From Thermoplasmata archaeon (GTDB taxonomy: Archaea > Thermoplasmatota > Thermoplasmata > Sysuiplasmatales > Sysuiplasmataceae): a stretch of DNA of 36,391 nt. The position numbers were made by a program, and so were the translations under genes. Below, one piece after another: positions 1 to 19,917 of this stretch. Position 1 is the first letter of the stretch; each line of letters begins with the position of its first letter. The stretch spans positions 1 to 36,391 of the forward strand of contig JAKAVR010000017.1 of the NCBI GenBank assembly GCA_021817225.1, given 5' to 3'. The notes under the pieces are model-generated. The model saw nothing but the letters and a program-made list of their open reading frames with translations, ran no database searches and was not told the origin of the DNA.

Positions 1-127
1 TCCTGGTGTTTTGGGTACGTTTCATTCACAAACGTCAAGTTTCGAAGAAACATCACAGCCATACGTATCGCGTGCAGCCAGATCATGCAGTTCGGCGGCG
101 GGGAGTGGCTGGATATTGTCCCAAAGC
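1..127. mobile_element. Right end of an IS copy, cut by the window edge
   Basis: These 127 bases are identical, base for base, to 4527-4653, the right end of the complete element at 3825-4653. The copy ends with the same terminal inverted repeat (atattgtcccaaagc, 113-127). The rest of the element must lie left of the window. Both copies have the same orientation. ORF-track starts inside this segment (position 85) are artefacts of reading from the IS into the adjacent gene. Confidence 0.85.
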
Positions 128-155
128 CGTCTGATTACGTCTGGTTACACATCTT

Positions 156-163
156 CTTATATT
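156..163 (+). promoter_or_regulatory. TATA-like box for the secreted protein gene
   Basis: The A/T-only core cttatatt lies outside the IS end. A start site about 25 bp downstream (near 185) would leave a short leader holding a purine-rich Shine-Dalgarno-like run (ggagaggggg, 187-196) before the ATG at 208. Inferred from spacing only. Confidence 0.4.
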
Positions 164-207
164 GGCATGGGACTTTCTTAGGGGTAGGAGAGGGGGTGTT
201 GAGCCAT

Positions 208-1686
208 ATGAAAGGTGTAAAACGAAGCAGGCTATTATTTTGTGCCTTGGCCGTAGTCGTCATATCAGTGTCGGTAATGCTAATTCCGGCATTCGGTCAA
301 CGAACGGGCTTCGCAGGAACGCAAGCTTCGTTTAACTCGGGGAGTCTGAATCTTCAGTATCCCTCTGGTCTTCTCACATACTATGTTGGGCCCACTAGCT
401 TTGCAACTTTCTTGACGAGTGTTGGAGCCCCAGTAAGAGCGATACAGCAAGTTTCTATTTCTGACTTGAACTATCTTCCGAATGAGTCAAGCCTGGTAGT
501 CAACAACCAAGCAGTGGAGACAAATCTCCTAACTGTCAATTCCACAGCCCATCTATTTGGGAAGGGAGATTTGCTTATGATTTATGATCCTACCGGTGTG
601 AACGCTACCTCTATGGAATATTTCCTCGGGGCCGCATGGGCAACGGAATTCCATTCCAACATCATGGGGTTACTACCTGTCGAGCCTTCTCCGTCGGGCA
701 ATTTGATAGCCGCGAATGGTGTTGCTGGATTACTGAAGATCAATAACCTACCGCTTTCGAACGGACTCGGCAAGATGAACTTCTTACTTCGAATACATTC
801 ATGGCAGAGCTTGATGAGAGGGCTAGTTGCCCAAGCAAGTGTTTCGGTTGCTAGCCCCAGTTCCACCACAGATGAAGTTACGTACCTGGACAACAACCTA
901 CCATCTGGAACTGTTATGCTGTTAACTGGTCAGACAGTCGGTAACAACAATCAGTATGGCGAATACATTTACGACATTGGAGTATGGTCAGAGAATACGT
1001 TGGTGGCCTATGGTTCCAGCCTACCCGGTGTTTATGAAATCCCGGTTACTACCATGGGTTGGATTAAGTTCACACCTAGCAGTACCTTACCCAATGTAGG
1101 CAGCATCAATAGTTTGAGTAGCAACATAAATTACATGAGCAGTTACCAGGCGTATCCAGGAACAGAAAACTCCTACCTCTACGATATACAAAGCGTCTCT
1201 CCGGACCAAAGCACAGGGTCTGGGTCAACGAGTTACACTCTAGGAGTGCACCTTGAAGGCATCTTCCCGTCGCCATATTTCCAAGTCACTTACACTCCTC
1301 CTTCTTCAACTCTCGTGGTCCAGTACAGTGACTATTCTTACACAGGCGTTCCTCAATCCGAAGACCTATATGGATGGAGTTTCTCATACGGACAGACGAT
1401 TGCAAACGGTGCGTACGCTGATGGTTACAGCGCTCAAGGCGATTGGCTTCTGACAGCAGGTTCGTCGAATTTCAACGACGCGAATATCAGTATGAATCAG
1501 CAGGTCCAACTCGTCGTTGGCGCCTCTCCTGGTCCCTGCTGTTCAGTCTACTATCAAATCGAGACGATAACACTCAACGGAAGTTTCTTCCTCTATTACT
1601 CTCCTTCAGGCTCAAGTTTCTCGACATCGGGTAGTTATTGTGCTCCAAATGGAGCCATTGTGACTACTTGCTGTGTTGACAACTAA
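208..1686 (+). CDS. Secreted protein of unknown family with Cys-rich C-terminus
   Basis: I do not recognise this 492-residue protein. The ORF track starts it at 85 inside the IS; I prefer ATG 208, which follows a purine-rich run and begins a classic signal peptide (MKGVKRSR, then about 20 hydrophobic residues, then a small-residue stretch ending AFGQ). The mature part is rich in Ser, Gly, Asn, Thr and Tyr with many N-x-S/T sequons, as in archaeal exported glycoproteins. There are no further obvious membrane spans, so it is probably released or surface-bound. Cysteines are confined to the signal peptide and the last ~70 residues, where CC, C and CC groups occur, suggesting a disulfide-stabilised C-terminal module. 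It is followed 16 bp later by a membrane-anchored DUF929-like gene, probably co-transcribed. Codon choice looks more A/T-rich than the core genes. A substrate-binding, adhesin or toxin-like role is equally possible; none is shown. Confidence 0.7.
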   Translation: MKGVKRSRLLFCALAVVVISVSVMLIPAFGQRTGFAGTQASFNSGSLNLQYPSGLLTYYVGPTSFATFLTSVGAPVRAIQQVSISDLNYLPNESSLVVNNQAVETNLLTVNSTAHLFGKGDLLMIYDPTGVNATSMEYFLGAAWATEFHSNIMGLLPVEPSPSGNLIAANGVAGLLKINNLPLSNGLGKMNFLLRIHSWQSLMRGLVAQASVSVASPSSTTDEVTYLDNNLPSGTVMLLTGQTVGNNNQYGEYIYDIGVWSENTLVAYGSSLPGVYEIPVTTMGWIKFTPSSTLPNVGSINSLSSNINYMSSYQAYPGTENSYLYDIQSVSPDQSTGSGSTSYTLGVHLEGIFPSPYFQVTYTPPSSTLVVQYSDYSYTGVPQSEDLYGWSFSYGQTIANGAYADGYSAQGDWLLTAGSSNFNDANISMNQQVQLVVGASPGPCCSVYYQIETITLNGSFFLYYSPSGSSFSTSGSYCAPNGAIVTTCCVDN

Positions 1687-1702
1687 CCGAACAGGTTTGG
1701 AC

Positions 1703-2479
1703 ATGACACGGCGTCAGAAGTTTTTCACGTTTGCTGGAACTATAGTTGTAATTGCACTTCTGATAGGCAGCATTGCAGCTTCAGGGTATTACAAGCGGCT
1801 ATTTGAATTGGAGAATGCGGGCTCTACCAATCTGGCGAACGGACTGACTTGGGGGCAGTTCACCCATATTTCTGGACAAGACTACGGTAACACAACGCAG
1901 GTATACTATGTTTCATGGTATGGCTGTCCAATAGGTGCAGCGGATTCATGGGCATTTTATGTGTATTTTTCGCGCGCAATGAATATGTCTATCTACGTGA
2001 GCCCCCATTATTCGGATCCATACGACAGCTTCCCGAATACCCCCGGTGTCATATTTGAAAAACAATTCACAGTTGGGGGTGTTTGGTTTCACCCGCTATA
2101 TGTGTACAATCAGTACATGAATCAAACAACAGGCGGGCTGTCTGTTAACAGAAGCGACTCTCTGGAACTCGGAATCAGCCTGCTCCAGTCTGAATTGCCG
2201 CAGGAAGTCTACTCGCTCGAGAGAAGCGCAATGGAGACACTTCCCACATTTGGAATGCCAGGCAATAGTGTCAATATCTCCAGCGGGACCATCTTGCAGC
2301 ACGTCAATACGAATGTGATAGTACTGGGGCCTAAGGGTGCTTGGATACTTAACGGTCCTCTTTTCACCCCCGAGTTTATCTATGGCCAGAATGCAGACGA
2401 TCTCCTGGCCGGAGCATTTAACAACAGCGAAATACAAACCGCCGCATCTCTGGTCGGATCCGTGATACAGTCAGACTGA
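1703..2479 (+). CDS. Membrane-anchored DUF929-like (thioredoxin-fold relative) protein
   Basis: This is a 258-residue protein from ATG 1703; the track's start at 1673 overlaps the upstream gene and precedes the hydrophobic segment by an unlikely polar stretch. An N-terminal anchor (residues ~6-28) is followed by an extracytoplasmic domain. The segment SWYGCPIGAADSWAFYVYFS resembles the DUF929 family, archaeal proteins with a thioredoxin-like fold whose usual site reads roughly CPYCAAERW. Here only one Cys of that pair remains (GCPIGA), so dithiol redox chemistry looks unlikely. The family match is from memory of motif style, not a search. It lies directly downstream of the secreted Cys-containing protein, consistent with a two-gene exported unit. 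A fragment of an IS256 transposase begins about 35 bp after the stop. Confidence 0.6.
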   Translation: MTRRQKFFTFAGTIVVIALLIGSIAASGYYKRLFELENAGSTNLANGLTWGQFTHISGQDYGNTTQVYYVSWYGCPIGAADSWAFYVYFSRAMNMSIYVSPHYSDPYDSFPNTPGVIFEKQFTVGGVWFHPLYVYNQYMNQTTGGLSVNRSDSLELGISLLQSELPQEVYSLERSAMETLPTFGMPGNSVNISSGTILQHVNTNVIVLGPKGAWILNGPLFTPEFIYGQNADDLLAGAFNNSEIQTAASLVGSVIQSD

Positions 2480-2514
2480 TGCATTTGTAACTACTCATTT
2501 TACCGGCAAATGGT

Positions 2515-2963
2515 GCTTTCTCGGTGCATCATGGCAGATGTGCCATGTACACTTCATCAGGAACCTGATGAAGGTCATAGCCGGAAAGCACTGGCATGAG
2601 CTCATAGACGCATTACACAATGCACTGGACAAACCGGCCGCAGTGAAGGAAACCGGAAAGATGCTGGAGCTTAAGGGACTGTCAAAGGCGATCGACATGT
2701 TCGACCGCCATCATGACTCCCTTCACTCCTTTGCAGCATTTCCGAAGGAACACTGGAGAAGGCTAAGGGCGACGAACATGATGGAACGGATGAACCTGGA
2801 ACTGAAGAGAAGGACGAAGAAGACAGGTGCATTTCCAAACGTTCCATCACTTCTCAGACTGACGGTGTCGCTGTCGATGGATATCGATGAAGAGTGGATC
2901 ACGGGAAGAAGGTACTTGAACATGGAGGCTATGAAGAAGAGGCAGGAAGGATACACGGTATAG
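2515..2963 (+). pseudogene. IS256 (Mutator) transposase, C-terminal fragment
   Basis: The reading frame begins abruptly (ASWQMCHVHFIRNL) and carries the typical C-terminal third of IS256/MULE transposases, including HWRRLRATNMMERMNLELKR, which includes the region of the last catalytic acidic residue, and the terminal EEWITGRRYL block. About 140-150 of the usual ~400 residues remain. The N-terminal two thirds, with the first two catalytic aspartates, are missing and replaced by the end of the DUF929-like gene. No matching inverted terminal repeats were seen. It is therefore an inactive relic, probably left by a deletion or recombination that assembled this island. Confidence 0.88.
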
Positions 2964-3198
2964 ATGAATCTACAGAAGACCATGTACACTGACCGATGTC
3001 CTCTCTGTGAAGAACTCCATCACGAATGCAATCTTCTAACAAGGTGTCGATATTTCGTACTCACAGTTTCACTTCCTCTATCTTAATTGTTCATTAGCCC
3101 TCATTTATACTAACTACAATATTTATTTATTTGGTGCGTAAGTCATCTCCACTATTGATGCACTCTTGGGCATCAAATATCAGGCGAACTCAAATAGA

Positions 3199-3481
3199 TC
3201 AAGCAGCTTCAAGAATTTCGTCAATATCTTCCAATTTCTTCGCTACTTTTCTGCCTTTTTTCGGTCAAGGAGATCAAGTTCTTTGGCGGATATTAACTAT
3301 TGTCCACCCTTTGTTTAACAAGTCCCATCTGCTTAGCCTTCTCCATTGACCGATATCCTTGGTTGATGGAGATACCCGCTTCGCCCCAAATCTTCGACAG
3401 GAGATATTCGCCCTTGTCATTCAGTAATAATATCAACCTGATCAGGCCCGATTGTTTCTCAAAGACTCGGATAAGTTGCAT
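3199..3481 (-). pseudogene. Winged-helix transcriptional regulator, broken by stop and frameshift
   Basis: From ATG 3481 the frame reads a small winged-helix regulator (IRLILLLNDKGEYLLSKIWG, then a recognition-helix-like segment INQGYRSMEKAKQMGLVKQR). An in-frame TAA (3293-3295) interrupts it. The same frame continues with YPPKNLISLTEK, and one extra base in a run of six A (plus-strand T 3256-3261) shifts it to GRKVAKKLEDIDEILEAA and a proper stop at 3199-3201. The reconstructed protein would be about 93 residues, like small archaeal MarR/ArsR-type regulators whose wing ends in a PPKN-I-LTEKG motif. Two independent lesions indicate genuine decay rather than a programmed event. Confidence 0.75.
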
Positions 3482-3581
3482 TCTGATTTCTACATATCAA
3501 GTTGCAATATGAATTATATCATTCGATTATCAAGTCAGAAGATATAAATGTGCTCCTAATCTGTTCTATATCGGAAGTTAG

Positions 3582-3755
3582 AATAGGAAATCAAGTGAAT
3601 CAGAAAGAGAGCCATATCTCTACAGTTCAAAGCCGACTCATGACATCCCTGTAGATCGGATATCTTCTGTCCCTGATTGGCTTGTCCAGTTGGAAGACAG
3701 TTTCGACTTGGATGTCCCGAATTACCCAATTCGCGTATCATTGAAAAGAAAGTAA
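3582..3755 (+). other. Possible remnant ORF, unidentified
   Basis: One plus-strand frame is open for 57 codons and ends at TAA 3753-3755. It has protein-like composition (VDRISSVPDWLVQLEDSFDL) but no ATG and no clear start, and the upstream frame closes at a TAG. A TATA-like gatataaa lies at 3541-3548. It may be the end of a decayed gene in this degraded island, or chance. I assign no function. Confidence 0.25.
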
Positions 3756-3824
3756 TATCTCACGTTTTCGGTAAATGAGCATGAATCTGCATCTTCATTT
3801 ACTGATTTTTATATAGCCTGTACG

Positions 3825-3839
3825 GCTTTGGGACAATAT
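3825..3839. repeat. Left terminal inverted repeat of the IS
   Basis: gctttgggacaatat, the exact reverse complement of 4639-4653. The match ends on both sides of the 15 bp. The transposase relic's stop codon overlaps it by one base. Confidence 0.9.
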
Positions 3840-4612
3840 TATGAGCCGATACTTCGAACCATTGTAGGCTCGGTGTGTGTGAGGTGGCAGCACTGCCTCA
3901 CATTGTGGACATTCGCCTTAAGGAACTCCTCTGTCGCCTTCCTCCCGGGCAGCTTCTTCCTTATCCTTGCAGGGAGCCTCCTCTTCAGCATCGACATGAC
4001 CGCCTCGGCATTAGAACGCATGTGGTAGGCGCTCAGCCACTGCTGAGTGTCGAGAACAAACGAATGCATCATGGCGGCCCATGACTGAACACCGTGGCTC
4101 CTGAATTTTGAATTCGATTTCGGAAGGAAGTAAGGCGTCACACCATACTTCTCCACGACAGAGCATATGTTACGGGCAGCATACAGCCTGTCGCCGAGCG
4201 GCGTGCCCACTGCGGGACAGTTGGATGCAGTCGTTTCCACGACTGCAGGGAAATGGGAGAGTTCACCGGTGCTGTGGTCATCGGTGGATGAGAGAGCGGA
4301 TATGACATTGGTGTGCACACCGGCTGTCAGGACAAGGTACTGGAAATTCGACTGTCTTGTATGAGAAACCGCGCGTGATGCGCAGCTTCTCACCGAACAC
4401 TCGGACAAGACCGGCTGCAACCCTGTTGCTCACACACAGATGATGCCATCTCCTTCAGCTCATCCGAGCATATGCGTTTCCTTCCACTGCTGTTCTCGCT
4501 CAACGGCAGGACAATCAATGAAGGACTCCTGGTGTTTTGGGTACGTTTCATTCACAAACGTCAAGTTTCGAAGAAACATCACAGCCATACGTATCGCGTG
4601 CAGCCAGATCAT
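3839..4612 (-). pseudogene. DDE transposase (IS4/IS5-like), frameshifted
   Basis: The longest open part (3839-4420) carries a DDE-type C-terminal domain: an Asp in GDRLYAARNICSVVEKYGV and the final Glu region in YHMRSNAEAVMSMLKRRL. Upstream, homologous-looking pieces are scattered over other frames: MIWLHAIRM...KETHMLG from ATG 4612, then SDELKEMASSVCEQQG, then VRVFGEKLRITRGFSYKTVE. The coding sequence therefore has several frameshifts and probably an internal deletion, since only about 260 codons remain. The track's TTG start at 4420 is not a real start. Family placement is by motif resemblance only. Confidence 0.8.
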
Positions 4613-4638
4613 GCAGTTCGGCGGCGGGGAGTGGCTGG

Positions 4639-4653
4639 ATATTGTCCCAAAGC
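4639..4653. repeat. Right terminal inverted repeat of the IS
   Basis: atattgtcccaaagc, the reverse complement of 3825-3839 and identical to 113-127 of the left copy. Confidence 0.9.
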
Positions 4654-4668
4654 AGGCGGCATGAGAAC

Positions 4669-4679
4669 CTTATTATATT
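4669..4679 (+). promoter_or_regulatory. TATA box of the SRP RNA gene
   Basis: The sequence cttattatatt is centred about 26 bp before the inferred 5' end of the SRP RNA at 4701, the canonical archaeal TBP spacing. The IS ends only 15 bp upstream, so the native sequence beyond the TFB-recognition region has been replaced by IS sequence. Confidence 0.7.
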
Positions 4680-4700
4680 GTTGCCAGGTTAGAACAATCG

Positions 4701-5007
4701 CCAGGCTTGGCCGGGGCGCTCGGCGTGCCCTTTTACACCGAAATCGTCGATAGCGGGGGCGACAGCCTGTGGAGACGTAACCGTAACACAGAAGGCGCAG
4801 CCGGGAACGATGAGGCTTCGTCCGGCGGGGCGCGAGGAGCCAGGACGACATGTCCGGAGGGACGTGACTCTTGGAATGGTCGCGGAAATCGGACCAGGCC
4901 CTGACGGGAGCAGTCTTACCGCGGACTACGTGCGCTCGTCGGGAAGCGGGGCCGAGGACCCTGCTGTCAAACCTTCTGTGAAGCGGCCGGCAACGCAGGC
5001 GGCCTGG
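4701..5007 (+). ncRNA. Signal recognition particle RNA (7S RNA)
   Basis: RNA scaffold of the signal recognition particle, which with SRP19 and SRP54 targets nascent membrane and exported proteins. The 5' part (ggccggggcgctcggcgt, then atcgtcgatagcgggg) matches the archaeal Alu-domain pattern as I know it. The helix 8 hairpin is explicit: accaggccc-tgac-gggagcagt, with the SRP54-binding asymmetric bases AGG/AGCAG around 4895-4914. The ends pair as archaeal helix 1 (ccaggc 4701-4706 with gcctgg 5002-5007). About 307 nt is the usual archaeal size. Oddities are a UGAC apical loop rather than the usual GNAR and a degenerate UGUNAY motif. The 3' end lies four bases from the stop codon of the convergent gene. 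Covariance-model confirmation was not possible here. Confidence 0.87.
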
Positions 5008-5011
5008 TACC

Positions 5012-5587
5012 TCAGAGTGTCAGCTGTTTTGTGTCGAGCGCAAGGTATGACAGCCTGTAGGATGCGGACAGTGCAGAAGTCAGCACTGCCCTCGACTCGT
5101 GCTCATATTCCCCTTCCACCGTATATGCAGGCTCCGACTCGGGGATCCTGTAGCCCGCTTTGGCGAGTATCCTCCTGGCTTCAGCGACCGTGGCCTGCGG
5201 CGCATGCCTCAGCTCCGCCGTCTCCCCCATCTTCATCTCGTTCAGTTCCCTCCTGAATATGGGTCTGTGGAACAGCCTTTCAAGGGTGTAGACTGCGACT
5301 GCGGTCGCCTTCCTCTTGTCAAGACCGTTCTCCTCGCATGCGTTCGCAATGGCCTCGTAGATCGTCATATCCTTTGGCCCGATGGGCGTGAATATCTTGG
5401 AAGGAGGAATGGCCTTCTCGCGTATTACACCTGTATCTGTCAGGGCTTTCAGATAGCCTGTCAGCACCAGTCTGTGGATATCAATCCCCCTCGATTTGAG
5501 CTTCCTGACCAGGCCGCTTATCGATACGGGCTCCGACCTTATTTCCTCGAGTATTATCTCTTTGAGCTGCTTATCTGGACTGAACAA
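5012..5587 (-). CDS. Winged-helix-like archaeal protein, function unknown
   Basis: A 191-residue cytoplasmic protein with no membrane segment. Residues ~7-60 (LKEIILEEIRSEPVSISGLVRKLKSRG...) have the helix spacing of a winged-helix DNA- or RNA-binding domain. The remainder is a charged helical region with a conserved-looking core (IGPKDMTIYEAIANACEENG). I cannot name the family. Initiation is at TTG 5587, and a TATA-like sequence about 25 bp upstream (5604-5614) predicts a leaderless transcript. The gene follows the site-2 protease on the same strand with a 40-bp gap that contains that promoter. It converges on the SRP RNA with almost no spacer. Confidence 0.7.
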   Translation of the reverse strand: MFSPDKQLKEIILEEIRSEPVSISGLVRKLKSRGIDIHRLVLTGYLKALTDTGVIREKAIPPSKIFTPIGPKDMTIYEAIANACEENGLDKRKATAVAVYTLERLFHRPIFRRELNEMKMGETAELRHAPQATVAEARRILAKAGYRIPESEPAYTVEGEYEHESRAVLTSALSASYRLSYLALDTKQLTL

Positions 5588-5603
5588 GTGATCGGGTTAG
5601 AAT

Positions 5604-5614
5604 ACATATTAGAT
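5604..5614 (-). promoter_or_regulatory. TATA-like box for the winged-helix-like gene
   Basis: On the minus strand the sequence reads atctaatatgt, about 25 bp before the TTG start at 5587. The spacing implies initiation at or near the start codon. Confidence 0.5.
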
Positions 5615-5627
5615 AACAAATACCTTT

Positions 5628-7196
5628 CTAGAGGTAAAGAAGCCTGGGGCCGATTATCTGCCAGATTATAAGGAACAGGACAAGAACGGAGAAGATGTTG
5701 GTTATGCCTCTCGCCAGCTTCTCCCGCCCTTCCTCCGTCCCGTTCTTCGCTGTCTTCTTGAGAAGGAGCCTTATGTTGTCTTTGAACAGGTATCCTCCGT
5801 CAAGCGGCAGTGCTGGCAGCATGTTGAAGAGACCAACCCAAAGGTCAATCCAGAACAGCCAGTACAATGAATTGGCGGCTATCCAGAAAAGCTGGCTGCC
5901 TCCGGAAATGCCGCCTGCATTGAGATTCGCTGCCAGCGCGGATGGAACCGGGGAGAGTCCTGCAAATGGAAGGACGAGAAACTGCAGGCCGCTGGTTATG
6001 TACGAATCGGGTGTGGTGGCGCCGTAGAACGGGTCCTTGAGAATCCCGACAACGCTGCTGACGGGGACTGCACCGAGTCCCATGTATGAGTAGTAGATGC
6101 CAAGAAAGCCGATCTGTCTGCCTCCTGTCGTTATGCCTTCCACCGCCTTTTCACTGCTGAGCGTTACGTCCTTGCTTATGGTGGTTCCGTTTGCAGCAAC
6201 GAAGACGAACGGGACAGTCTGGTCAGGCACGGTCCTGTTGAAGACTCCGGAGAGCGTCTCCTGGTTGTAGATGACAGTGTTGTTCATCTTCTCTATCACC
6301 CAGCCGGTCTGGATACCGCTCAGCGAAGCAGGTGAATTCGAGATGGTCCCGGTTATGACGATTCCGGCCTGAACCTGTTTCGTCAGGTATTTTCCGTTCT
6401 GAAGCAGGACAACAGGGTAATTCAGGCCGGGCTCGAGATTTCCAATGGGCGCGAGTCCGCTGCTGGAGGTCAGATTTGTTCCGTTGATGGATACGATCTC
6501 ACTCCATGGTTTGATCCCTGCCAGTGACGCGCTGCTATTGCCACCAACGGACACTACCGCCAGGCCATCGTGCATCGGCGTTACGCTTCCCATGAATGGG
6601 CCGAGGAAAAGAACAGCACATACCACCGCAATGATTATATTCGTCCCCGGTCCGACGCCAAAGACCCTTATTCTCTTCCTTGGCTCCACAGACTCAAGCT
6701 GCTGCTGCTCGGGCTCGACGAATGCTCCAACAGGAACAATGAAGAGGAGCACTCCCATCGATTTGACCTCTATGTCCTGCGCCTCTGAAAGCACCCCGTG
6801 CGCCAATTCGTGGAGCACTACAGCCACTATTATTCCAAGAAGGCCGTAGCCGAGAGGAACAAAAGGATTGATGCCTGGCAGCAGAAGGTACGTCTGCGGT
6901 GAAGGTATGCTCTGTTTCGGTATGCTGAGAACGAGTGTTGACTCCCAGAGCAGCAGCACAATCATCGCGGTCATTCCTATGAGGAACAGGACACGTGAAA
7001 TCTTGCCATAAATGATCCAGAAGCGTCTTGCCTTTGCTACCCGTCTGATTGCACCTCTCCCCTTCTCAGTCCTGAGGAGGATCATCGGTCCCATGAACGA
7101 AATATTCCATTTCTTCGCCAGTCCTGATTTCCAGAGAAACACGAGAAGGGCAAAGTATGCTATGAAAATGAGCGCAACAATGGCGTACGTATCCAC
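5628..7196 (-). CDS. Site-2 protease family (M50) membrane metalloprotease with PDZ domains
   Basis: Intramembrane zinc protease of 522 residues. The zinc-binding HELAH is at residues ~129-133 inside a membrane segment, and the third ligand motif NMLPALPLDGG is at ~458-468. Between them lie two PDZ-like regions (around AVVSVGGNSSASLAGIKPWS and TISNSPASLSGIQTGWVI) flanked by further membrane spans, as in RseP/S2P proteins that cut membrane-bound regulators after a first cleavage. The GTG start has a Shine-Dalgarno-like ggtgag just upstream, and a TATA-like agtataataat lies about 45-55 bp upstream. No anti-sigma-like substrate is encoded nearby, and archaeal S2P targets are mostly unknown. Confidence 0.93.
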   Translation of the reverse strand: MDTYAIVALIFIAYFALLVFLWKSGLAKKWNISFMGPMILLRTEKGRGAIRRVAKARRFWIIYGKISRVLFLIGMTAMIVLLLWESTLVLSIPKQSIPSPQTYLLLPGINPFVPLGYGLLGIIVAVVLHELAHGVLSEAQDIEVKSMGVLLFIVPVGAFVEPEQQQLESVEPRKRIRVFGVGPGTNIIIAVVCAVLFLGPFMGSVTPMHDGLAVVSVGGNSSASLAGIKPWSEIVSINGTNLTSSSGLAPIGNLEPGLNYPVVLLQNGKYLTKQVQAGIVITGTISNSPASLSGIQTGWVIEKMNNTVIYNQETLSGVFNRTVPDQTVPFVFVAANGTTISKDVTLSSEKAVEGITTGGRQIGFLGIYYSYMGLGAVPVSSVVGILKDPFYGATTPDSYITSGLQFLVLPFAGLSPVPSALAANLNAGGISGGSQLFWIAANSLYWLFWIDLWVGLFNMLPALPLDGGYLFKDNIRLLLKKTAKNGTEEGREKLARGITNIFSVLVLFLIIWQIIGPRLLYL

Positions 7197-7318
7197 TTTT
7201 CTCTCACCTGCGGTCCGTCAAGCAAGGAGTGAACAGCACCGTATTATTATACTCTCCTTTTTCCCTCCGCTCGAGCATAACCGGCACGATAATCATTTCC
7301 CCGCATCGTGACATCGAA

Positions 7319-8011
7319 TCAAGCATATGTAATCTTCAGGCCGCGCAAGGAGGCATCTTCCACAATTGACTTCGCTCGTGCAAGTTTCCTTCTCTTGATA
7401 TCTCCCTCTGTTCCCTTCTCGGCTATTCTTTCAAAATCGAAGCCTGCCAGAATCACATCAGCGGCTCCGAATTCCTCGCACAGGAGAACAGCCCTGTCAC
7501 CGTCAGTAAAACCGCCAAAGTTGAATGTGCAATCCGTGGGACCCGCCTGTGTTGTGACTATTGCCCTTCCTCTCAAACTGCCCGTGAATTCCGTCGCTCT
7601 GGCTATGTTGTCACCGTGGAAGTGCACAACAGCAAGAGAGCCCGCGCCATTCATTCCCTTCTCTGTTTCAACGTCACCGTCGAGGTCGGTCACTATTATG
7701 TCGGGGACAATTCCAAGGCCATGGAGCGTCCGGCACGAACTGTCGGAAGCGATTATTGCCCTTCCTGCGACTTCACCGGCTGCACGCAGCCTGTCCATGT
7801 CCACCGCCAGAGAAGGCGCATTTCCCGTTACGAGGCACTTGCGGGCCAGCGTCTTCCTGAGCACTCCCAGCGCTTCTTCTCCCTTCATTATGGCAGGATT
7901 GGAAGCAGAAGCTCTGTTCCCTGCCTCCCTGGCTTTCTGCTCATTCCCCGGGTCATAAGAGAAGTCAGAAAGTATGTGTTCGTAACTTGCTCTCCAGTCT
8001 TCCCATTTCAT
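7319..8011 (-). CDS. mptE: 6-hydroxymethylpterin diphosphokinase MptE-like (DUF115)
   Basis: 230 residues. The central region (LVTGNAPSLAVDMDRLRAAG, then IIASDSSCRTLHGLGIVPDI and VTDLDGD) matches the archaeal MptE/DUF115 family, which transfers diphosphate from ATP to 6-hydroxymethyl-7,8-dihydropterin. This is the step before dihydropteroate synthase in folate or methanopterin synthesis. Its start overlaps the end of the DUF373 gene by four bases (8008-8011), so the two are probably translationally coupled. A dihydropteroate synthase gene lies about 10 kb away in the same window, consistent with a working pterin branch. Confidence 0.88.
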   Translation of the reverse strand: MKWEDWRASYEHILSDFSYDPGNEQKAREAGNRASASNPAIMKGEEALGVLRKTLARKCLVTGNAPSLAVDMDRLRAAGEVAGRAIIASDSSCRTLHGLGIVPDIIVTDLDGDVETEKGMNGAGSLAVVHFHGDNIARATEFTGSLRGRAIVTTQAGPTDCTFNFGGFTDGDRAVLLCEEFGAADVILAGFDFERIAEKGTEGDIKRRKLARAKSIVEDASLRGLKITYA

Positions 8012-9171
8012 TTCAGAACCTGGGTTCCAGCTTCAGGACTCTCGCTTCTTTCGTCGTTGTCATCAATCGGTGTGCCGTCCATGCCGTGAACACCGACATT
8101 GAGCAATCCACCGAACATGGCCGTCAGTATTCCCGCAATCACCTCGACCACAATGAGCGCCGTGTTTATGGGTACCAAATGGTAAATCAGCTTGATTGAA
8201 TCGACTGCACCTTGTATTATGAGCCCGATGGCAAGGAACATGAGACCTGCGGTGATTGAAGACCAGGAAATCTTCCGTGTGCTTATGTAGACATTCACGA
8301 ACCTGCCAACCTCCAGGACAAATACTGCAAATATGCCTATCCAAAGGAAGCTTGAGACAAATATGAGCACCAGTATCTGGGGCGGGACGTTTCTTGCATC
8401 TATCACCGTTGAGGAAGCATAGAGAAATCCGAGCACGATCATTACGGCGGTGACGATTGCGAATGGCAGCATCTGGCTGCCTGACCTGATGGCCTTCCAG
8501 ATGGATTTCGATCCCCTCTTTATCGCTTCACTTATGTCATAGGCGTACCAAATCAGGTAAAGGCCGATCACGAACGTTATCAGCCCGGGGGCAATTCCCG
8601 AGATGTAGCCTATGTTATGCGTATTGCTCAGGCTGAGAAGATCGGATAACATAAGGAAGAAGCCGTAAACCAAGAGTATGGCCGAAATTGGCGCCAGGAT
8701 CTTCCTCCTCATTTTCTTGTCTCTCAGCGTTTTTATCAGTATGTAGTAGACGCCCTCCACCGTGGGCGTCTGCTTTATGAAAATCCTTCGCACGCTGTCT
8801 ATCTTTATTCTCGACGATATCACCGGATAGAAGAATTCATCCTCTGCTCCGTTGCTGATCAGTATGGCCCTGTCGGCCTTGACAATTTCAATTACCTTTT
8901 CAAGCTGCTGCGCAAGTATCCTGTCCGACTCAATGCCGACGTTCTGGCTTCCCACGATGGTGGCAACCTGGACTTCCATGCCCCTCTTCGAGAGCTCATC
9001 GTACATTGATACTGCGGAAAGCACCGTGTTTGCATCCGGATCCTCCGGGTCGGCCAGTGCCAGGGCTGTGCCTGCCTCGAAGTTGGCCTCTCGGCCAACA
9101 AACGGGCCGGTGAGGTGCGCCTTGGCGCCAAGGTCATCATCCCGGTCAACGCAGAGAATCAGCGTCTTCAT
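8008..9171 (-). CDS. DUF373 family membrane protein
   Basis: 387 residues. The N-terminal ~150 residues form a soluble domain starting KTLILCVDRDDDLGAKA, the hallmark opening of DUF373 proteins, widespread in Euryarchaeota and of unknown function. It is followed by about six membrane segments. The conserved acidic run VDRDDD and the later ISNGAEDEF look like a ligand- or nucleotide-binding face. The ATG start at 9171 has a TATA-like atttaaat at 9201-9208, giving a leader of under ten bases. The four-base overlap with mptE suggests a shared operon, and so a possible link to pterin metabolism that is not otherwise established. Confidence 0.88.
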   Translation of the reverse strand: MKTLILCVDRDDDLGAKAHLTGPFVGREANFEAGTALALADPEDPDANTVLSAVSMYDELSKRGMEVQVATIVGSQNVGIESDRILAQQLEKVIEIVKADRAILISNGAEDEFFYPVISSRIKIDSVRRIFIKQTPTVEGVYYILIKTLRDKKMRRKILAPISAILLVYGFFLMLSDLLSLSNTHNIGYISGIAPGLITFVIGLYLIWYAYDISEAIKRGSKSIWKAIRSGSQMLPFAIVTAVMIVLGFLYASSTVIDARNVPPQILVLIFVSSFLWIGIFAVFVLEVGRFVNVYISTRKISWSSITAGLMFLAIGLIIQGAVDSIKLIYHLVPINTALIVVEVIAGILTAMFGGLLNVGVHGMDGTPIDDNDERSESPEAGTQVLK

Positions 9172-9200
9172 TTGACTAGTGTTAAATTGTCGTGTGCGCT

Positions 9201-9208
9201 ATTTAAAT
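9201..9208 (-). promoter_or_regulatory. TATA box of the DUF373-mptE operon
   Basis: The palindromic atttaaat is centred 33 bp upstream of the DUF373 ATG. It predicts transcription start near 9179 and a leader of about eight bases. Confidence 0.55.
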
Positions 9209-9313
9209 GAATTGTTGCCTGTTGAAGGGGAAAGCACTTCAGGCCCAGGGCATCTCCGTTTCAAAAAGATTTTTACTTGATGGCAATTATATCAATGCAC
9301 GACAGAACAGGAA

Positions 9314-10210
9314 ATGTTGTCCAAGGACAAAAGCTACAGAACAATCTCGATGACGCTGCTGGCAGATGGTTTGCTTTTCATTCTCATACTGGCCATCTCG
9401 TTCATAAGCAAGAGTGCGGCTGTCTTCTCCGAAGCGCTCTATCAGCTCAGCGATCTTGCCAGCGGTGGCCTGCTCCTGTTTGCAATCTGGAGCTCACTAA
9501 GACCTGCAGACGAGCTTCATCACTTCGGATACGGGCTGGAGAGATTCTTCTGGTCGTTTGTGAGCGGCGTGTTCGTCTTCTCGGTCAGCGGTGCAGTGGT
9601 TGTGCTGAGCGGCCTGTTCGATTTCTACGACGGACGCAGGGTGACAAATATCGGGCTCAGCATGACAGTGCTTGGCATTACGATTGCAGTGAGCGCTGCA
9701 AGCCTCCTCTACATCATCTACAGGAAGAGAAGGTTCTATGACAACCGTCCTGACGCGCTCCAGAAGTATCATCAGGGCGTCAGGACTGTTTTGCTACAGG
9801 ACGTTATGAGCATCGCCTCGAGCTTTGTGGCTGTTGGCGCCCTGGCACTTGTCAGTTACACCGGGTACAATTACTTCGACTCCCTCGCTGCTGTCATAAA
9901 CGGAATCCTGCTGCTTGTGACCGGAATTGCCCTTTCGGCCGAATCAAGGGGATTGCTCATAGGGAAGGGACTCAACAGAGCGCAGATGCTCAAAGTGACA
10001 ACTGATCTGCAGACGCTTCCGGATGTCAACAGGATACGGGAGATAAAATCGATATACCTCGGCCCAGAGAGCCTTCTTATTGTGATAAGGATTAATTTCA
10101 GGGACGGGCTGACAACCGATCAGCTTGAGAAGGCAATAGACAAGGTCCAATTGGAGCTTGTGAAGAGAATGCCAGAATTCAAGCATGTGATTGTTGAACC
10201 AGAGAGCTGA
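9314..10210 (+). CDS. Cation diffusion facilitator (CDF) family transporter
   Basis: 298 residues with about six membrane segments and a soluble C-terminal domain (from ~residue 212) ending in the typical HVIVEPE strand. CDF proteins export divalent metals such as Zn, Fe or Mn by proton antiport. The motif HFGYGLERFFW after TM2 fits the family loop. The metal site is unusual: TM2 reads YQLSD (residues 43-47) where many members have H/D-x3-D, and TM5 reads LQDVMSIAS with no His four residues before the Asp. Substrate prediction is therefore unsafe. ATG 9314 follows a weak cagga. A T-run ends the gene. It is transcribed divergently from DUF373. Confidence 0.88.
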   Translation: MLSKDKSYRTISMTLLADGLLFILILAISFISKSAAVFSEALYQLSDLASGGLLLFAIWSSLRPADELHHFGYGLERFFWSFVSGVFVFSVSGAVVVLSGLFDFYDGRRVTNIGLSMTVLGITIAVSAASLLYIIYRKRRFYDNRPDALQKYHQGVRTVLLQDVMSIASSFVAVGALALVSYTGYNYFDSLAAVINGILLLVTGIALSAESRGLLIGKGLNRAQMLKVTTDLQTLPDVNRIREIKSIYLGPESLLIVIRINFRDGLTTDQLEKAIDKVQLELVKRMPEFKHVIVEPES

Positions 10211-16523: not shown

Positions 16524-17810
16524 ATGGAAAGATTTGACGCCATTGTGATAGGCGCAGGTCCTGCAGGCAGCACGGCAGCATACAGGATGGCCAAAGGGGG
16601 CCTGAAGGTGCTGCTAGTGGAGCGCGCGAAGGTGCCCGGTGGGAAGAACCTGTTCGGCGGAAGGATTTACTCCCACATACTTCGCAAACACTTCGGCAAC
16701 TTCGAATCGGATGCGCCTGTCGAGAGGTTCGTTGTGAGGGAAACAATAGGCATGATGGACGAATTCGACTGCGCATCGATCGACTTTTCATCGCACAGGT
16801 CTGAAGCGAACAAGGCCTCCAGCTTCATCGCGAGGCGGAGCAGATTCGACAAGTGGCTTGCCGAGAAGGCGGAAGGCGCCGGAGCGCTTCTTGTGCCCGG
16901 CACAAGGGTTGAAGATATTGTCGTCAGGGACGGGGCTGTACGCGGCATTGTCTCGGGCGGTGATTCGATTGAGTCAGAATGTGTTGTGAATGCCGAAGGG
17001 GTAACGGCGACAATTGCCAGGAAGGCTGGTCTGAGGGATGATGTTCTCCCATCACAGGTCAAGGTGGGTGTGAAGGAGACAATCGAGCTCGGGAAGGATG
17101 TAATAAATGACAGATTCAATCTGTCCGACGATGAAGGGACCGCGGGCGTTTTCATAGGTTATCCCGCCTCCTATCTGAGCGCCAGCGGCTCTTTCGTGTA
17201 CACAAATTCGGACAGCGTTTCGATTGGCATTGTTGTGGACCCAACGGAACAGTCAGGTGCCAGAAAGGATGTGCAGCTGATGATAGAGGAATTCCGTCTT
17301 CATCCGTATATGCAGAGGCTTCTGAAGGGGGGCAGGATGATAGAGTATTCTGCACATATGATACCAAACTCCGTCCCTCTTGAACCTTCCAACCTGGTCG
17401 GAAACGGTTTTCTGAACACGGGCGATGCCGCAGGCCTCTTCGTAAACCACGGTTTCACTTACAGGGGGGTGGATTTCGCCATTGCCTCAGGCATCGCGGC
17501 CGCAGATGCCGTGATAAGCGCTCACTCCGCCGGCTCATACGGAAGGGATTCGCTCATGTCATACTACGATTATCTCGCCAGGGAAGTAATTCCAGAGCTC
17601 CGTCGTGCCGAGAGAACGGCAGGGGTGCTCCACAACAAGAGGATGTTCTCGACCTATCCGCCGCTTGTTCTAGACTTTCTTGAGGACATGTTCAGATTCG
17701 ACGGTGTTGGAAAGGCTCCGGTTTCCTCATCTCTCAAGAAGAACATGAAGGGGAGGATTTCAATGCTGACAGCGCTTCGTGACATGCTGTCCGCCTACAG
17801 AAAGATGTGA
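16524..17810 (+). CDS. FixC-like flavoprotein (ETF:quinone oxidoreductase family)
   Basis: 428-residue FAD enzyme. The dinucleotide motif VIGAGPAGSTAAYRMAKGG is N-terminal, ERAKVPGGKNLFGGRIYSH is the FixC-specific segment, and GFLNTGDAAGLFVNHGFTYR is the second FAD-contacting motif. FixC proteins pass electrons from electron-transfer flavoproteins to quinone; related geranylgeranyl reductases saturate isoprenoids, but the KNLFGGRIYS block favours FixC. No fixA, fixB or ferredoxin-like fixX is adjacent, which is unusual for a complete system. Quinone-synthesis genes lie 2-4 kb downstream. An aggggc run precedes ATG 16524. It converges on folP with five bases between stops. Confidence 0.85.
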   Translation: MERFDAIVIGAGPAGSTAAYRMAKGGLKVLLVERAKVPGGKNLFGGRIYSHILRKHFGNFESDAPVERFVVRETIGMMDEFDCASIDFSSHRSEANKASSFIARRSRFDKWLAEKAEGAGALLVPGTRVEDIVVRDGAVRGIVSGGDSIESECVVNAEGVTATIARKAGLRDDVLPSQVKVGVKETIELGKDVINDRFNLSDDEGTAGVFIGYPASYLSASGSFVYTNSDSVSIGIVVDPTEQSGARKDVQLMIEEFRLHPYMQRLLKGGRMIEYSAHMIPNSVPLEPSNLVGNGFLNTGDAAGLFVNHGFTYRGVDFAIASGIAAADAVISAHSAGSYGRDSLMSYYDYLAREVIPELRRAERTAGVLHNKRMFSTYPPLVLDFLEDMFRFDGVGKAPVSSSLKKNMKGRISMLTALRDMLSAYRKM

Positions 17811-17815
17811 AGACT

Positions 17816-18964
17816 TCAGGGTGCAAACGAAGCGTTCCCTGAAACTGCATTCCATACCAGCAGGGCCCTCCTTGTTTCAGGGACATCGTGTACGCGAACA
17901 ATGTTGGCACCCATTGCGCAACCGTAGAGTGCAGCAGCTAAGCTGCCTTCAAGTCTTTTTTCCTTTTCACCCGTCAATGCGGGTACGAAACTCTTTCTTG
18001 AAACTCCCAGAACCACAGGTTTTCCAAGTGAATGCAGTGCGTCGAGCTCCCTCAGGAGCTGCAGGTTGTGTTCGACAGTCTTGCCGAAGCCTATGCCCGG
18101 GTCCACAAGAATATTGCGGACATCAACCCCATCACTCTCGCTCTCCTCAAGCATTCCTGAGATGAATGAGCATACCTCATACACAACATCCTGGTATGTG
18201 GGTGCATTCTGCATGGTGCGCGGTCCTCCGAGCATATGCATCACTATGGCGGGACATTCGCGGTCAGACACGAGTTTTCTCATCTTTCGTTTTCTCAGGC
18301 CCGAAACGTCGTTGAGAATGGATGCACCCGCATCCAGGGCGGCCGCAGCCACTTCAGGCTTCATCGTATCGACTGATATTGGAACATGCGTTCCTGAGGA
18401 AAGTTTCCTGATAACCGGGACCACCCTCCTGATCTCCTCGCGGGCGCTCACCGGAGATGCACCGGGTCTCGTGGATTCTCCTCCAACATCTATGAAGTCT
18501 GCTCCCTCCCCGGCCATTTCCAGGCCATGTGCGACAGCTGACTTCTCGTCGAAGAAAATTCCCCCGTCAGAAAAAGAGTCAGGCGTCACGTTCAGCACAC
18601 CCATTACGGAGGGCCGCTCAAGCAGTATCCTTCTGCCCCCCGCTCTGAGCTGAAACGGCCATCTGCGACAGTAGTTTTCAACCGCATTCTCAAAACAGTT
18701 TTTGAACTCTGAAGATGTATTTGCAGACATGACGGTTGACGTGAGTGTTTCGACATCCGCTTCTATCGTTATCACCGGCGAGTTTGAGATAAGCCTTGTT
18801 TCATGCCTGGCGTGATGCCTGACGGCTGCTGAAGCAAGTTTTGAAAGATCGCCCCTGCCGATTTTTCCCGCTCTCATCCTGTAGGCTGGCGAAGGCAGAC
18901 CATCCTTTCTCCCCTTCTCTGCCCAATTACCTGAATTGTCGGTCCGCGACAGCAGAACAAGCAT
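17816..18964 (-). CDS. folP: Dihydropteroate synthase with N-terminal extension
   Basis: Joins the pterin diphosphate made by MptE-type enzymes to an aminobenzoate, in folate or methanopterin-type cofactor synthesis. The DHPS core starts near residue 105: VMGVLNVTPDSFSDGG, DVGGESTRPGA, SILNDVSGLR, LVDPGIGFGKTVEHNL, GVSRKSFV. I start it at ATG 18964, which has ggag with a five-base spacer. The track's start at 19264 runs through the upstream UbiA gene in another frame. About 100 residues precede the core (VLLSRTDNSGNWAEKG...), more than in bacterial FolP; this segment is unrecognised. The gene follows the UbiA gene by 41 bp. Confidence 0.93.
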   Translation of the reverse strand: MLVLLSRTDNSGNWAEKGRKDGLPSPAYRMRAGKIGRGDLSKLASAAVRHHARHETRLISNSPVITIEADVETLTSTVMSANTSSEFKNCFENAVENYCRRWPFQLRAGGRRILLERPSVMGVLNVTPDSFSDGGIFFDEKSAVAHGLEMAGEGADFIDVGGESTRPGASPVSAREEIRRVVPVIRKLSSGTHVPISVDTMKPEVAAAALDAGASILNDVSGLRKRKMRKLVSDRECPAIVMHMLGGPRTMQNAPTYQDVVYEVCSFISGMLEESESDGVDVRNILVDPGIGFGKTVEHNLQLLRELDALHSLGKPVVLGVSRKSFVPALTGEKEKRLEGSLAAALYGCAMGANIVRVHDVPETRRALLVWNAVSGNASFAP

Positions 18965-19005
18965 CTGCACTCCATAGGCGAAGTGCTCAATTTTTAACTT
19001 TGCAC

Positions 19006-19917
19006 TCAGGCAAGAAGGAGCGCTGCTGCCATCGCCACGCTTCCACCGAGCTGAAGCGCAACGTAGTACTTTGTGCCCCTGGAGATATCGACAGCATTGC
19101 CTGCGGATGAACGAGTGTGCCTGAGGGGGAAATACGACAGTAGAGCGGACACGGCAAGAGGCACGAGGATGAATGGGCCGTAAAGAGGGTATATCGGCAG
19201 GATGGCGACCATGCCAAACACTAGGAAGACGGTTTGCATCAGGAATGCATTTCCGATCCTCCACTGGTAGATATGCAGGAATCTCGATACCCTCCTCGAA
19301 CTCCTGTCGGGAAGGTGGTGCGCGTACCTGACCGCAGTTATCCAGAACGAGGCAGGAATTGTGACGATAACGGCCATGGCAGACAATTCACCTGTGAGGA
19401 GGAAGTATAGCGCCAGCGCAGGGAGGGGGCCAAATGCGATAAACGGGACGGGTTCCCCTACTCCCCTGGCTCCAAGCATGAAGGGCGGAACTGCATATAC
19501 AACGGTCAGGAGGAACCCCGCAACTCCTATCAGCATTATCACAATGAAGCCCGTTTCAAATGCGAGGTAAAAACCAAGCAGTGCTGCTATGGTGAAGACT
19601 AGGGCGGCATACCGCGCAATCCTCTCGGCCGGAAGCCCGGTCGTGTCTATCAGGAACGGCCCTGTCGGTATCCATGTATCGGCCTGTGTTATGAAGACGC
19701 CCTCGCTCTTGTCAGCCACTTCGGCAATCAGGTTTACTCCAACCTCAAACACGAAAAGTGCGACGGCACCAGCCAGCCACATCAGTGGATGCAATACCTT
19801 CCCGCTCCTGAAGGCAAGTGCATAGGTAAGCAGCACGGGCGCTCCGGAGGCCCAGTAGAGTGGAATCCTCAGACCCTTCAGCCAAACTGCGGCTCCCATC
19901 ATACATCCCTTTTTCAT
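19006..19917 (-). CDS. UbiA-family prenyltransferase, divergent
   Basis: 303 residues with about eight or nine membrane segments. The UbiA superfamily attaches isoprenoid chains to aromatic or lipid acceptors using two Asp-rich motifs. Motif 1 here is VGVNLIAEVADKSEG, with Glu replacing the first Asp of NxxxDxxxD. Motif 2 is AVRYAHHLPDRSSRR, with a reduced acidic set. The site is therefore atypical, though the N and key acidic positions partly survive. A second, canonical UbiA gene ends 36 bp upstream and a UbiE-like methyltransferase lies beyond, so quinone synthesis is the best guess. ATG 19917 is used; the TATA-like cttaataac at 19935-19943 would also suit ATG 19902. Confidence 0.78.
   Translation of the reverse strand: MKKGCMMGAAVWLKGLRIPLYWASGAPVLLTYALAFRSGKVLHPLMWLAGAVALFVFEVGVNLIAEVADKSEGVFITQADTWIPTGPFLIDTTGLPAERIARYAALVFTIAALLGFYLAFETGFIVIMLIGVAGFLLTVVYAVPPFMLGARGVGEPVPFIAFGPLPALALYFLLTGELSAMAVIVTIPASFWITAVRYAHHLPDRSSRRVSRFLHIYQWRIGNAFLMQTVFLVFGMVAILPIYPLYGPFILVPLAVSALLSYFPLRHTRSSAGNAVDISRGTKYYVALQLGGSVAMAAALLLA

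What the first reader, a model, noticed from the sequence alone, without database searches (positions are those of the whole stretch)
208..2479. Candidate undescribed two-gene exported system: secreted Cys-tail protein plus anchored DUF929-like protein
A 492-residue signal-peptide protein with CC/C/CC clusters confined to its C-terminus is followed 16 bp later by a membrane-anchored thioredoxin-fold relative. Both would work outside the membrane, and both sit in a mobile-looking island. A secreted effector with a partner for folding, anchoring or immunity is one reading; an adhesin with an assembly factor is another.
Basis: inference. Interest (0 to 1): 0.6.

Follow-up and report, generated by a model that had tools for sequence, protein, structure and literature searches.

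The report
Two exported-protein genes in IS island
Two genes for exported proteins sit side by side in a stretch of transposon-rich DNA recently inserted into an archaeal genome, but searches of about 400 related genomes show they are not a conserved pair, so they look like ordinary accessory cargo rather than a new two-part system.

Summary
ORF1 (208-1686, 492 aa, signal peptide, five mature Cys all in the last 49 residues) is followed 16 bp later by a DUF929 protein (1703-2479, 258 aa, PF06053 E 1.5e-41). The "system" reading is not supported. ORF1 homologues occur in 4 of 400 Thermoplasmata genomes, DUF929 in 132, and the two are adjacent only here. The three other ORF1 homologues have readable downstream flanks without DUF929. 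The Cys tail is also not conserved: it is absent in the 54%-identical homologue. DUF929 is a described family with one invariant thiol (28/28) at the thioredoxin active-site position and no second Cys, so it fails the CxxC test for a DsbA-type oxidase.

The island is real. The pair lies between two copies of one IS, at GC3 48-52% against 58-64% for neighbours. The block interrupts an ancestral junction (ATPase-SRP RNA) that the nearest relative keeps intact at 93% nucleotide identity. Best reading: two accessory exported genes carried as cargo, probably co-transcribed, with a DUF929 thiol protein whose tie to ORF1 is local rather than conserved. A weaker hint: DUF929 genes with a close upstream co-directional gene often follow an exported protein (5 of 7 groups, post hoc).

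The parts
1..127 (.). Right end of an IS element; identical to 4527-4653; the contig starts inside it
   Evidence: 100% identical direct repeat; third copy ending at the same IS base at C66:16852-17070
208..1686 (+). ORF1: 492-aa exported orphan protein, Ser/Gly/Asn/Thr-rich, C-terminal Cys cluster (444, 445, 478, 488, 489)
   Evidence: homologues in 3 other genomes; no Pfam match
1687..1702 (+). 16-bp intergenic gap, too short for a separate promoter; AGGT ribosome-site-like match
   Evidence: sequence; co-transcription is inference
1703..2479 (+). DUF929 protein, N-terminal anchor and exported thioredoxin-like domain, invariant Cys75 in WYGCPIGAADSW
   Evidence: PF06053 1.5e-41; alignment; model pLDDT 82
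2538..2963 (+). Remnant of a Mutator/IS256-type transposase, C-terminal third only
   Evidence: PF00872 positions 253-378 of 379, E 6.4e-25
3825..4653 (.). IS copy, about 829 bp, terminal inverted repeats GCTTTGGGACAATAT; degraded transposase-like ORF 3839-4420 (-)
   Evidence: no significant Pfam match to the ORF
4658..5009 (+). Right flank of the insertion: collinearity with related genomes resumes at 4658-4661; SRP RNA gene 4699-5009
   Evidence: BLAST to G003 (93%), G001 and G002; Rfam RF01857

Best explanation
The two genes are accessory cargo of an IS-rich insertion, probably one transcription unit, but not a dedicated two-component system. Step 1 (shown): an IS-flanked, lower-GC block carrying ORF1 and DUF929 lies between a KaiC-like ATPase gene and the SRP RNA gene, a junction that is uninterrupted in the closest relative. 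Step 2 (inferred from the signal peptide and anchor): ORF1 is secreted or shed, and the DUF929 protein stays in the membrane with its domain outside. Step 3 (inferred): the DUF929 domain acts as an extracytoplasmic single-thiol thioredoxin-like protein. Its invariant Cys sits before the first helix, where thioredoxins and DsbA have their attacking Cys, but it lacks the second Cys. It would therefore form mixed disulfides, reduce or shield thiols or sulfoxides, or bind metal with help from another thiol, rather than act as a stand-alone oxidase. Step 4 (inferred, weakest): in this lineage it may service the Cys tail of ORF1, since tail and partner are both present here. ORF1 is most likely a secreted beta-rich binding or hydrolytic protein (a guess from composition and a poor model); its activity is not determined.
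For: Insertion: IS right end at 1-127 and full copy at 3825-4653. Window from 4658 on matches G003 L124 1440-3639 at 93%, and C66:15233-16674 of the same genome matches L124 1-1441 at 92.6%. So G003 joins directly what G000 has split by about 7 kb or more of IS-rich DNA. GC3 of ORF1 and DUF929 is 0.48 and 0.52, against 0.58-0.64 for six genes in the rest of the window. ORF1 in G004 and DUF929 in G001 also lie beside transposase-like genes. No conserved pairing. DUF929: Cys75 in 28/28, no other conserved Cys. Strand 65-72 then helix 76-90 puts Cys75 at the thioredoxin active-site spot. DsbA, TlpA, Sco and GPx structures feature in the top of the PDB fold list, though none is significant. Earlier profile work assigned DUF929 to the thioredoxin clan (PMC3091736), and DUF929 proteins were found in the Picrophilus torridus secretome (PMC8345856). 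DUF929 paralogues neighbour COX1, MsrA, thioredoxin/thioredoxin reductase (read from sequence) and an AhpC/TSA-like protein.
Against: The left side of the insertion is interrupted by contig ends, so its full length and target site are not seen, and the genome is a metagenome bin. A 16-bp gap with intact frames could mean a young, real partnership. Foldseek E-values are 0.1 or worse, so the fold assignment leans on a published profile comparison. No expression data were available.
Confidence: 0.7

Rival explanations
1. A real but young two-gene device: the DUF929 protein is a membrane-anchored folding or thiol-transfer partner for the Cys tail of ORF1, assembled recently in this lineage and spread by IS elements.
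For: 16-bp gap and same strand. The Cys cluster is non-random. DUF929 genes with a close co-directional upstream gene follow an exported protein in 5 of 7 independent groups, against 37 of 204 such neighbours generally (Fisher P about 0.002, post hoc). Partners are different families (PNGaseA-like, a Hint-like exported protein, AhpC/TSA-like, an anchored 269-aa protein).
Against: ORF1 is unrelated to the other exported neighbours compared. No other ORF1 has DUF929 beside it. The G004 ORF1 lacks the Cys tail and the genome lacks DUF929, which fits loss together, but one case is no test. DUF929 lacks the second Cys of folding oxidases.
Confidence: 0.17
2. Secreted effector or toxin (ORF1) with an anchored immunity protein (DUF929).
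For: Only the arrangement and the mobile context.
Against: DUF929 is a widespread chromosomal family (132 of 400 genomes) with constant housekeeping-like neighbours in Thermoplasmataceae-type genomes, unlike immunity proteins. ORF1 in G004 lives without it. No effector domain found.
Confidence: 0.03
3. ORF1 is an adhesin or surface structure and DUF929 its assembly factor.
For: ORF1 composition (Ser 14%, Thr 8%, Asn 8%, Tyr 7%) suits a surface beta-protein.
Against: No adhesin domain, no anchor or sorting signal seen in ORF1, no usable model; pairing not conserved.
Confidence: 0.06

Closest known systems
DUF929 / PF06053, thioredoxin-like clan (PMC3091736; seen in the P. torridus secretome, PMC8345856)
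   Same: Full-length profile match, N-terminal anchor, invariant WxGCPxGAxxSW with a single Cys
   Different: Lies in an IS island beside an orphan secreted protein instead of COX1, MsrA or tetrapyrrole-methylase genes as in Thermoplasmataceae paralogues
DsbA / TlpA / Sco extracytoplasmic thioredoxin-fold proteins
   Same: Predicted membrane anchor, exported domain, Cys at the N-end of the first helix; they appear at the top of the fold-search list
   Different: No CxxC (second Cys is Gly), no conserved second Cys, no significant fold-search E-value
Composite transposon / IS-flanked cargo island
   Same: Two directly oriented IS ends flank the block; atypical GC; intact junction in relatives
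   Different: One IS end runs off the contig; outer target duplication not seen; other IS remnants present, so a single mobilisation event is not shown
Thermopsin and other secreted acid proteases of thermoacidophiles
   Same: Secreted, Ser/Thr/Asn-rich protein (resemblance from memory only)
   Different: No Pfam match at E up to 10 to any peptidase family for any of four ORF1 family members

Membership tests
DUF929 (PF06053) | Profile match above curated cut-off over the full domain | tested here: met
   142.7 bits against cut-off 24.6, positions 2-204 of 205
DUF929 (PF06053) | Invariant WxGCPxGAxxSW motif | tested here: met
   alignment of 28 sequences
Thioredoxin fold | Significant structural match to thioredoxin-fold structures | tested here: inconclusive
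   DsbA, TlpA, Sco and GPx near the top of the list but best E 0.1, probability 0.21 or less; published profile p about 1e-4
DsbA-type disulfide oxidase | CxxC active site | tested here: not met
   CPIG; no second conserved Cys in 28 sequences
Conserved two-gene ORF1-DUF929 system | Adjacent homologues in more than one lineage | tested here: not met
   1 adjacency among 4 ORF1 genomes and 132 DUF929 genomes of 400
Conserved two-gene ORF1-DUF929 system | Shared transcript | not testable with these tools
   16-bp gap suggests it; no RNA data
IS-borne genomic island | Interrupts a junction intact in relatives | tested here: met
   G003 L124 1-1441 matches C66 and 1440-3639 matches the window from 4658
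Composite transposon | Two full IS copies with outer target-site duplication | tested here: inconclusive
   second copy cut by contig start
Thermopsin / peptidase families | Pfam match | tested here: not met
   none at E up to 10

The most novel reading that the evidence does not exclude
DUF929 proteins are single-thiol, membrane-anchored helpers that pair with changing exported partners and pass thiols to them outside the cell in acid-living archaea. The ORF1 Cys tail would be one client, and mobile elements would move client and helper together.
Probability: 0.12. Interest if true: 0.55.

Novelty: new member of a known kind. Interest (0 to 1): 0.22.

Why it matters
It removes a candidate 'new system' and leaves smaller, testable points: ORF1 is a rare orphan secreted family (4 of 400 genomes), and DUF929 is a widespread extracytoplasmic single-thiol family whose neighbours (terminal oxidase, MsrA, thioredoxin/thioredoxin reductase, AhpC/TSA-like) suggest redox work outside the membrane in archaea, where disulfide handling is poorly known. 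If the helper idea held, it would give these archaea a new thiol-handling route.

Tried and rejected
ORF1 structure prediction with its four-member alignment gave pLDDT 31 and was not used for a fold search. ORF1 searches of Pfam, NCBIfam, PHROGs, PDB sequences, GTDB contigs, IMG/VR, phages and plasmids found nothing credible. A weak hit in G011 (E 0.001) is a PKD-like repeat protein by reading its sequence and was rejected. The TGA that ends the G004 homologue lies where the window has Cys478. A selenocysteine reading was considered and rejected: the sequence beyond it aligns poorly and ordinary truncation is simpler. Remote homology between ORF1 and the other exported DUF929 neighbours was tested with hhalign and not found. 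A Sulfolobales search with ORF1 failed because the tool needs a genome handle.

Full report
OBSERVATION. The two genes are real and at the stated place. ORF1 runs 208-1686 (+), 492 aa with a typical signal peptide. DUF929 runs 1703-2479 (+), 258 aa, 16 bp downstream. The ORF1 frame is open to base 1, but bases 1-127 are an IS end and the full-length homologues start at the equivalent of 208. The five mature cysteines of ORF1 lie at 444, 445, 478, 488 and 489, all in the last 49 residues. A random placement would do that about once in 1e5, or about 5 in 1e4 for any 49-residue window. Codon-position differences against homologues show the third position changing most in both genes, as expected for genes kept by selection.

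DUF929. The second protein matches PF06053 at 1.5e-41 over the whole domain. In 28 aligned homologues one cysteine is invariant, inside WxGCPxGAxxSW, and no other cysteine is conserved. The model (mean pLDDT 82) has one N-terminal helix and a domain in which strand 65-72 is followed by Cys75 and helix 76-90, the thioredoxin active-site arrangement. Foldseek against the PDB lists DsbA, TlpA, Sco and glutathione peroxidase among its best matches, but the best E-value is 0.1, so this alone is not proof. Independent published profile work placed DUF929 in the thioredoxin clan (PMC3091736). DUF929 proteins were detected in the experimental secretome of Picrophilus torridus (PMC8345856). Because the second active-site cysteine is glycine, it fails the defining feature of a DsbA-type oxidase. 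A single-thiol role is the safer inference.

ORF1. No library gives ORF1 a family, and no PDB sequence matches its profile. Only four of 400 Thermoplasmata genomes hold it: the window's own, G004 (54% identity), G127 (35%) and a C-terminal fragment in G001. The Cys tail is not a family trait. G004 stops before it; G127 has two C-terminal cysteines and the G001 fragment one. The AlphaFold model is unusable (pLDDT 31), so the biochemical activity stays open.

CO-OCCURRENCE. DUF929 is in 132 of 400 genomes of the class above the family cut-off, so ORF1 and DUF929 co-exist in some genomes by frequency alone. Adjacency is what matters, and it is seen once. Downstream of ORF1, G004 has an MFS-like transporter, G127 a small membrane protein and G001 a ribosomal-protein-like gene (names from sequence reading). 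In G002, DUF929 follows a PNGaseA-like exported protein (PF12222, E 4.8e-17) by 67 bp. In G001 it stands between transposase-like genes. In the family that holds most full-length matches (f17, taken to be Thermoplasmataceae from named records such as Acidiplasma and Cuniculiplasma), DUF929 paralogues have other, constant neighbours: COX1, MsrA, tetrapyrrole methylase, an M1-like peptidase. One residual hint was found after the fact: among DUF929 genes with a co-directional upstream gene within about 100 bp, 5 of 7 independent groups have an exported upstream gene, against 37 of 204 such neighbours overall (Fisher P about 0.002). ORF1 is unrelated to the other exported partners compared, the sample is small, the export calls are simple hydrophobicity calls, and the test was not planned.

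ISLAND. Window 1-127 is identical to 4527-4653, the right end of an approximately 829-bp IS at 3825-4653 with inverted ends GCTTTGGGACAATAT. A third, truncated copy ending at the same base lies at C66:16852-17070 of the same genome. Between the copies are ORF1, DUF929 and the C-terminal third of an IS256-type transposase. From 4658 rightwards the window is collinear with G003 (93% nucleotide identity), G001 and G002: SRP RNA (Rfam RF01857 at 4699-5009), a 191-aa gene, an M50 protease. In G003 the DNA left of that point is a KaiC-like ATPase region. In the window's own genome that region is on contig C66 and is collinear with G003 up to C66:16674, then breaks into IS DNA. G003 therefore shows the uninterrupted junction, and the window's genome carries about 7 kb or more of IS-rich DNA there (C66:16675-19220 plus window 1-4653). 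ORF1 and DUF929 also have lower GC3 (0.48, 0.52) than six other genes of the window (0.58-0.64). The mobile-island part of the finding is the best-supported part. A single composite transposon is possible but not shown, since one side runs off the contig.

VERDICT. Real genes and a real insertion, with one member of a known single-thiol thioredoxin-like family and one rare orphan secreted protein. A dedicated two-gene system is not supported. Co-transcription and a local client-helper relation remain possible and testable.

Noticed in passing
L008 (G002 C14, JAJZXY010000001.1) 2817-9576: A Thermoplasmata archaeon carries a run of amino-sugar genes: glucosamine-6-P isomerase family, AnmK anhydro-MurNAc kinase, a SIS-domain MurQ-like protein, a beta-lactamase-family hydrolase, an amidohydrolase (NagA-like) and a GH3 (NagZ-like). 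It looks like scavenging of bacterial cell-wall sugars (Pfam).
   Followed up: partly
L048 5781-7787 (-) and L057 3576-5147 (+): An exported 668-aa protein with a C-terminal Hint/intein-like stretch (GCVLKGTEITLANGT...; Pfam only E 0.22) sits 12 bp before a DUF929 gene in G137. In G109 the homologue precedes a DUF929 gene broken by a stop.
   Followed up: partly
L113 (G000 C66) 17071-19220: An approximately 2.1-kb element with inverted ends (TTGTTGGATACCGAGTGAT) encodes a 590-aa protein with a C-terminal WYL match (6.4e-7) and no known transposase domain in Pfam.
   Followed up: no
L078, L083-L086; L050, L074; L059, L061; L098: DUF929 paralogues lie beside COX1 terminal oxidase, methionine sulfoxide reductase A, thioredoxin plus thioredoxin reductase, and an AhpC/TSA-like protein: a hint of redox function for the whole family.
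   Followed up: partly
L003 1540-1543 (-): The G004 ORF1 homologue ends at a TGA where the window has Cys478; the reading frame beyond is not clearly homologous.
   Followed up: partly
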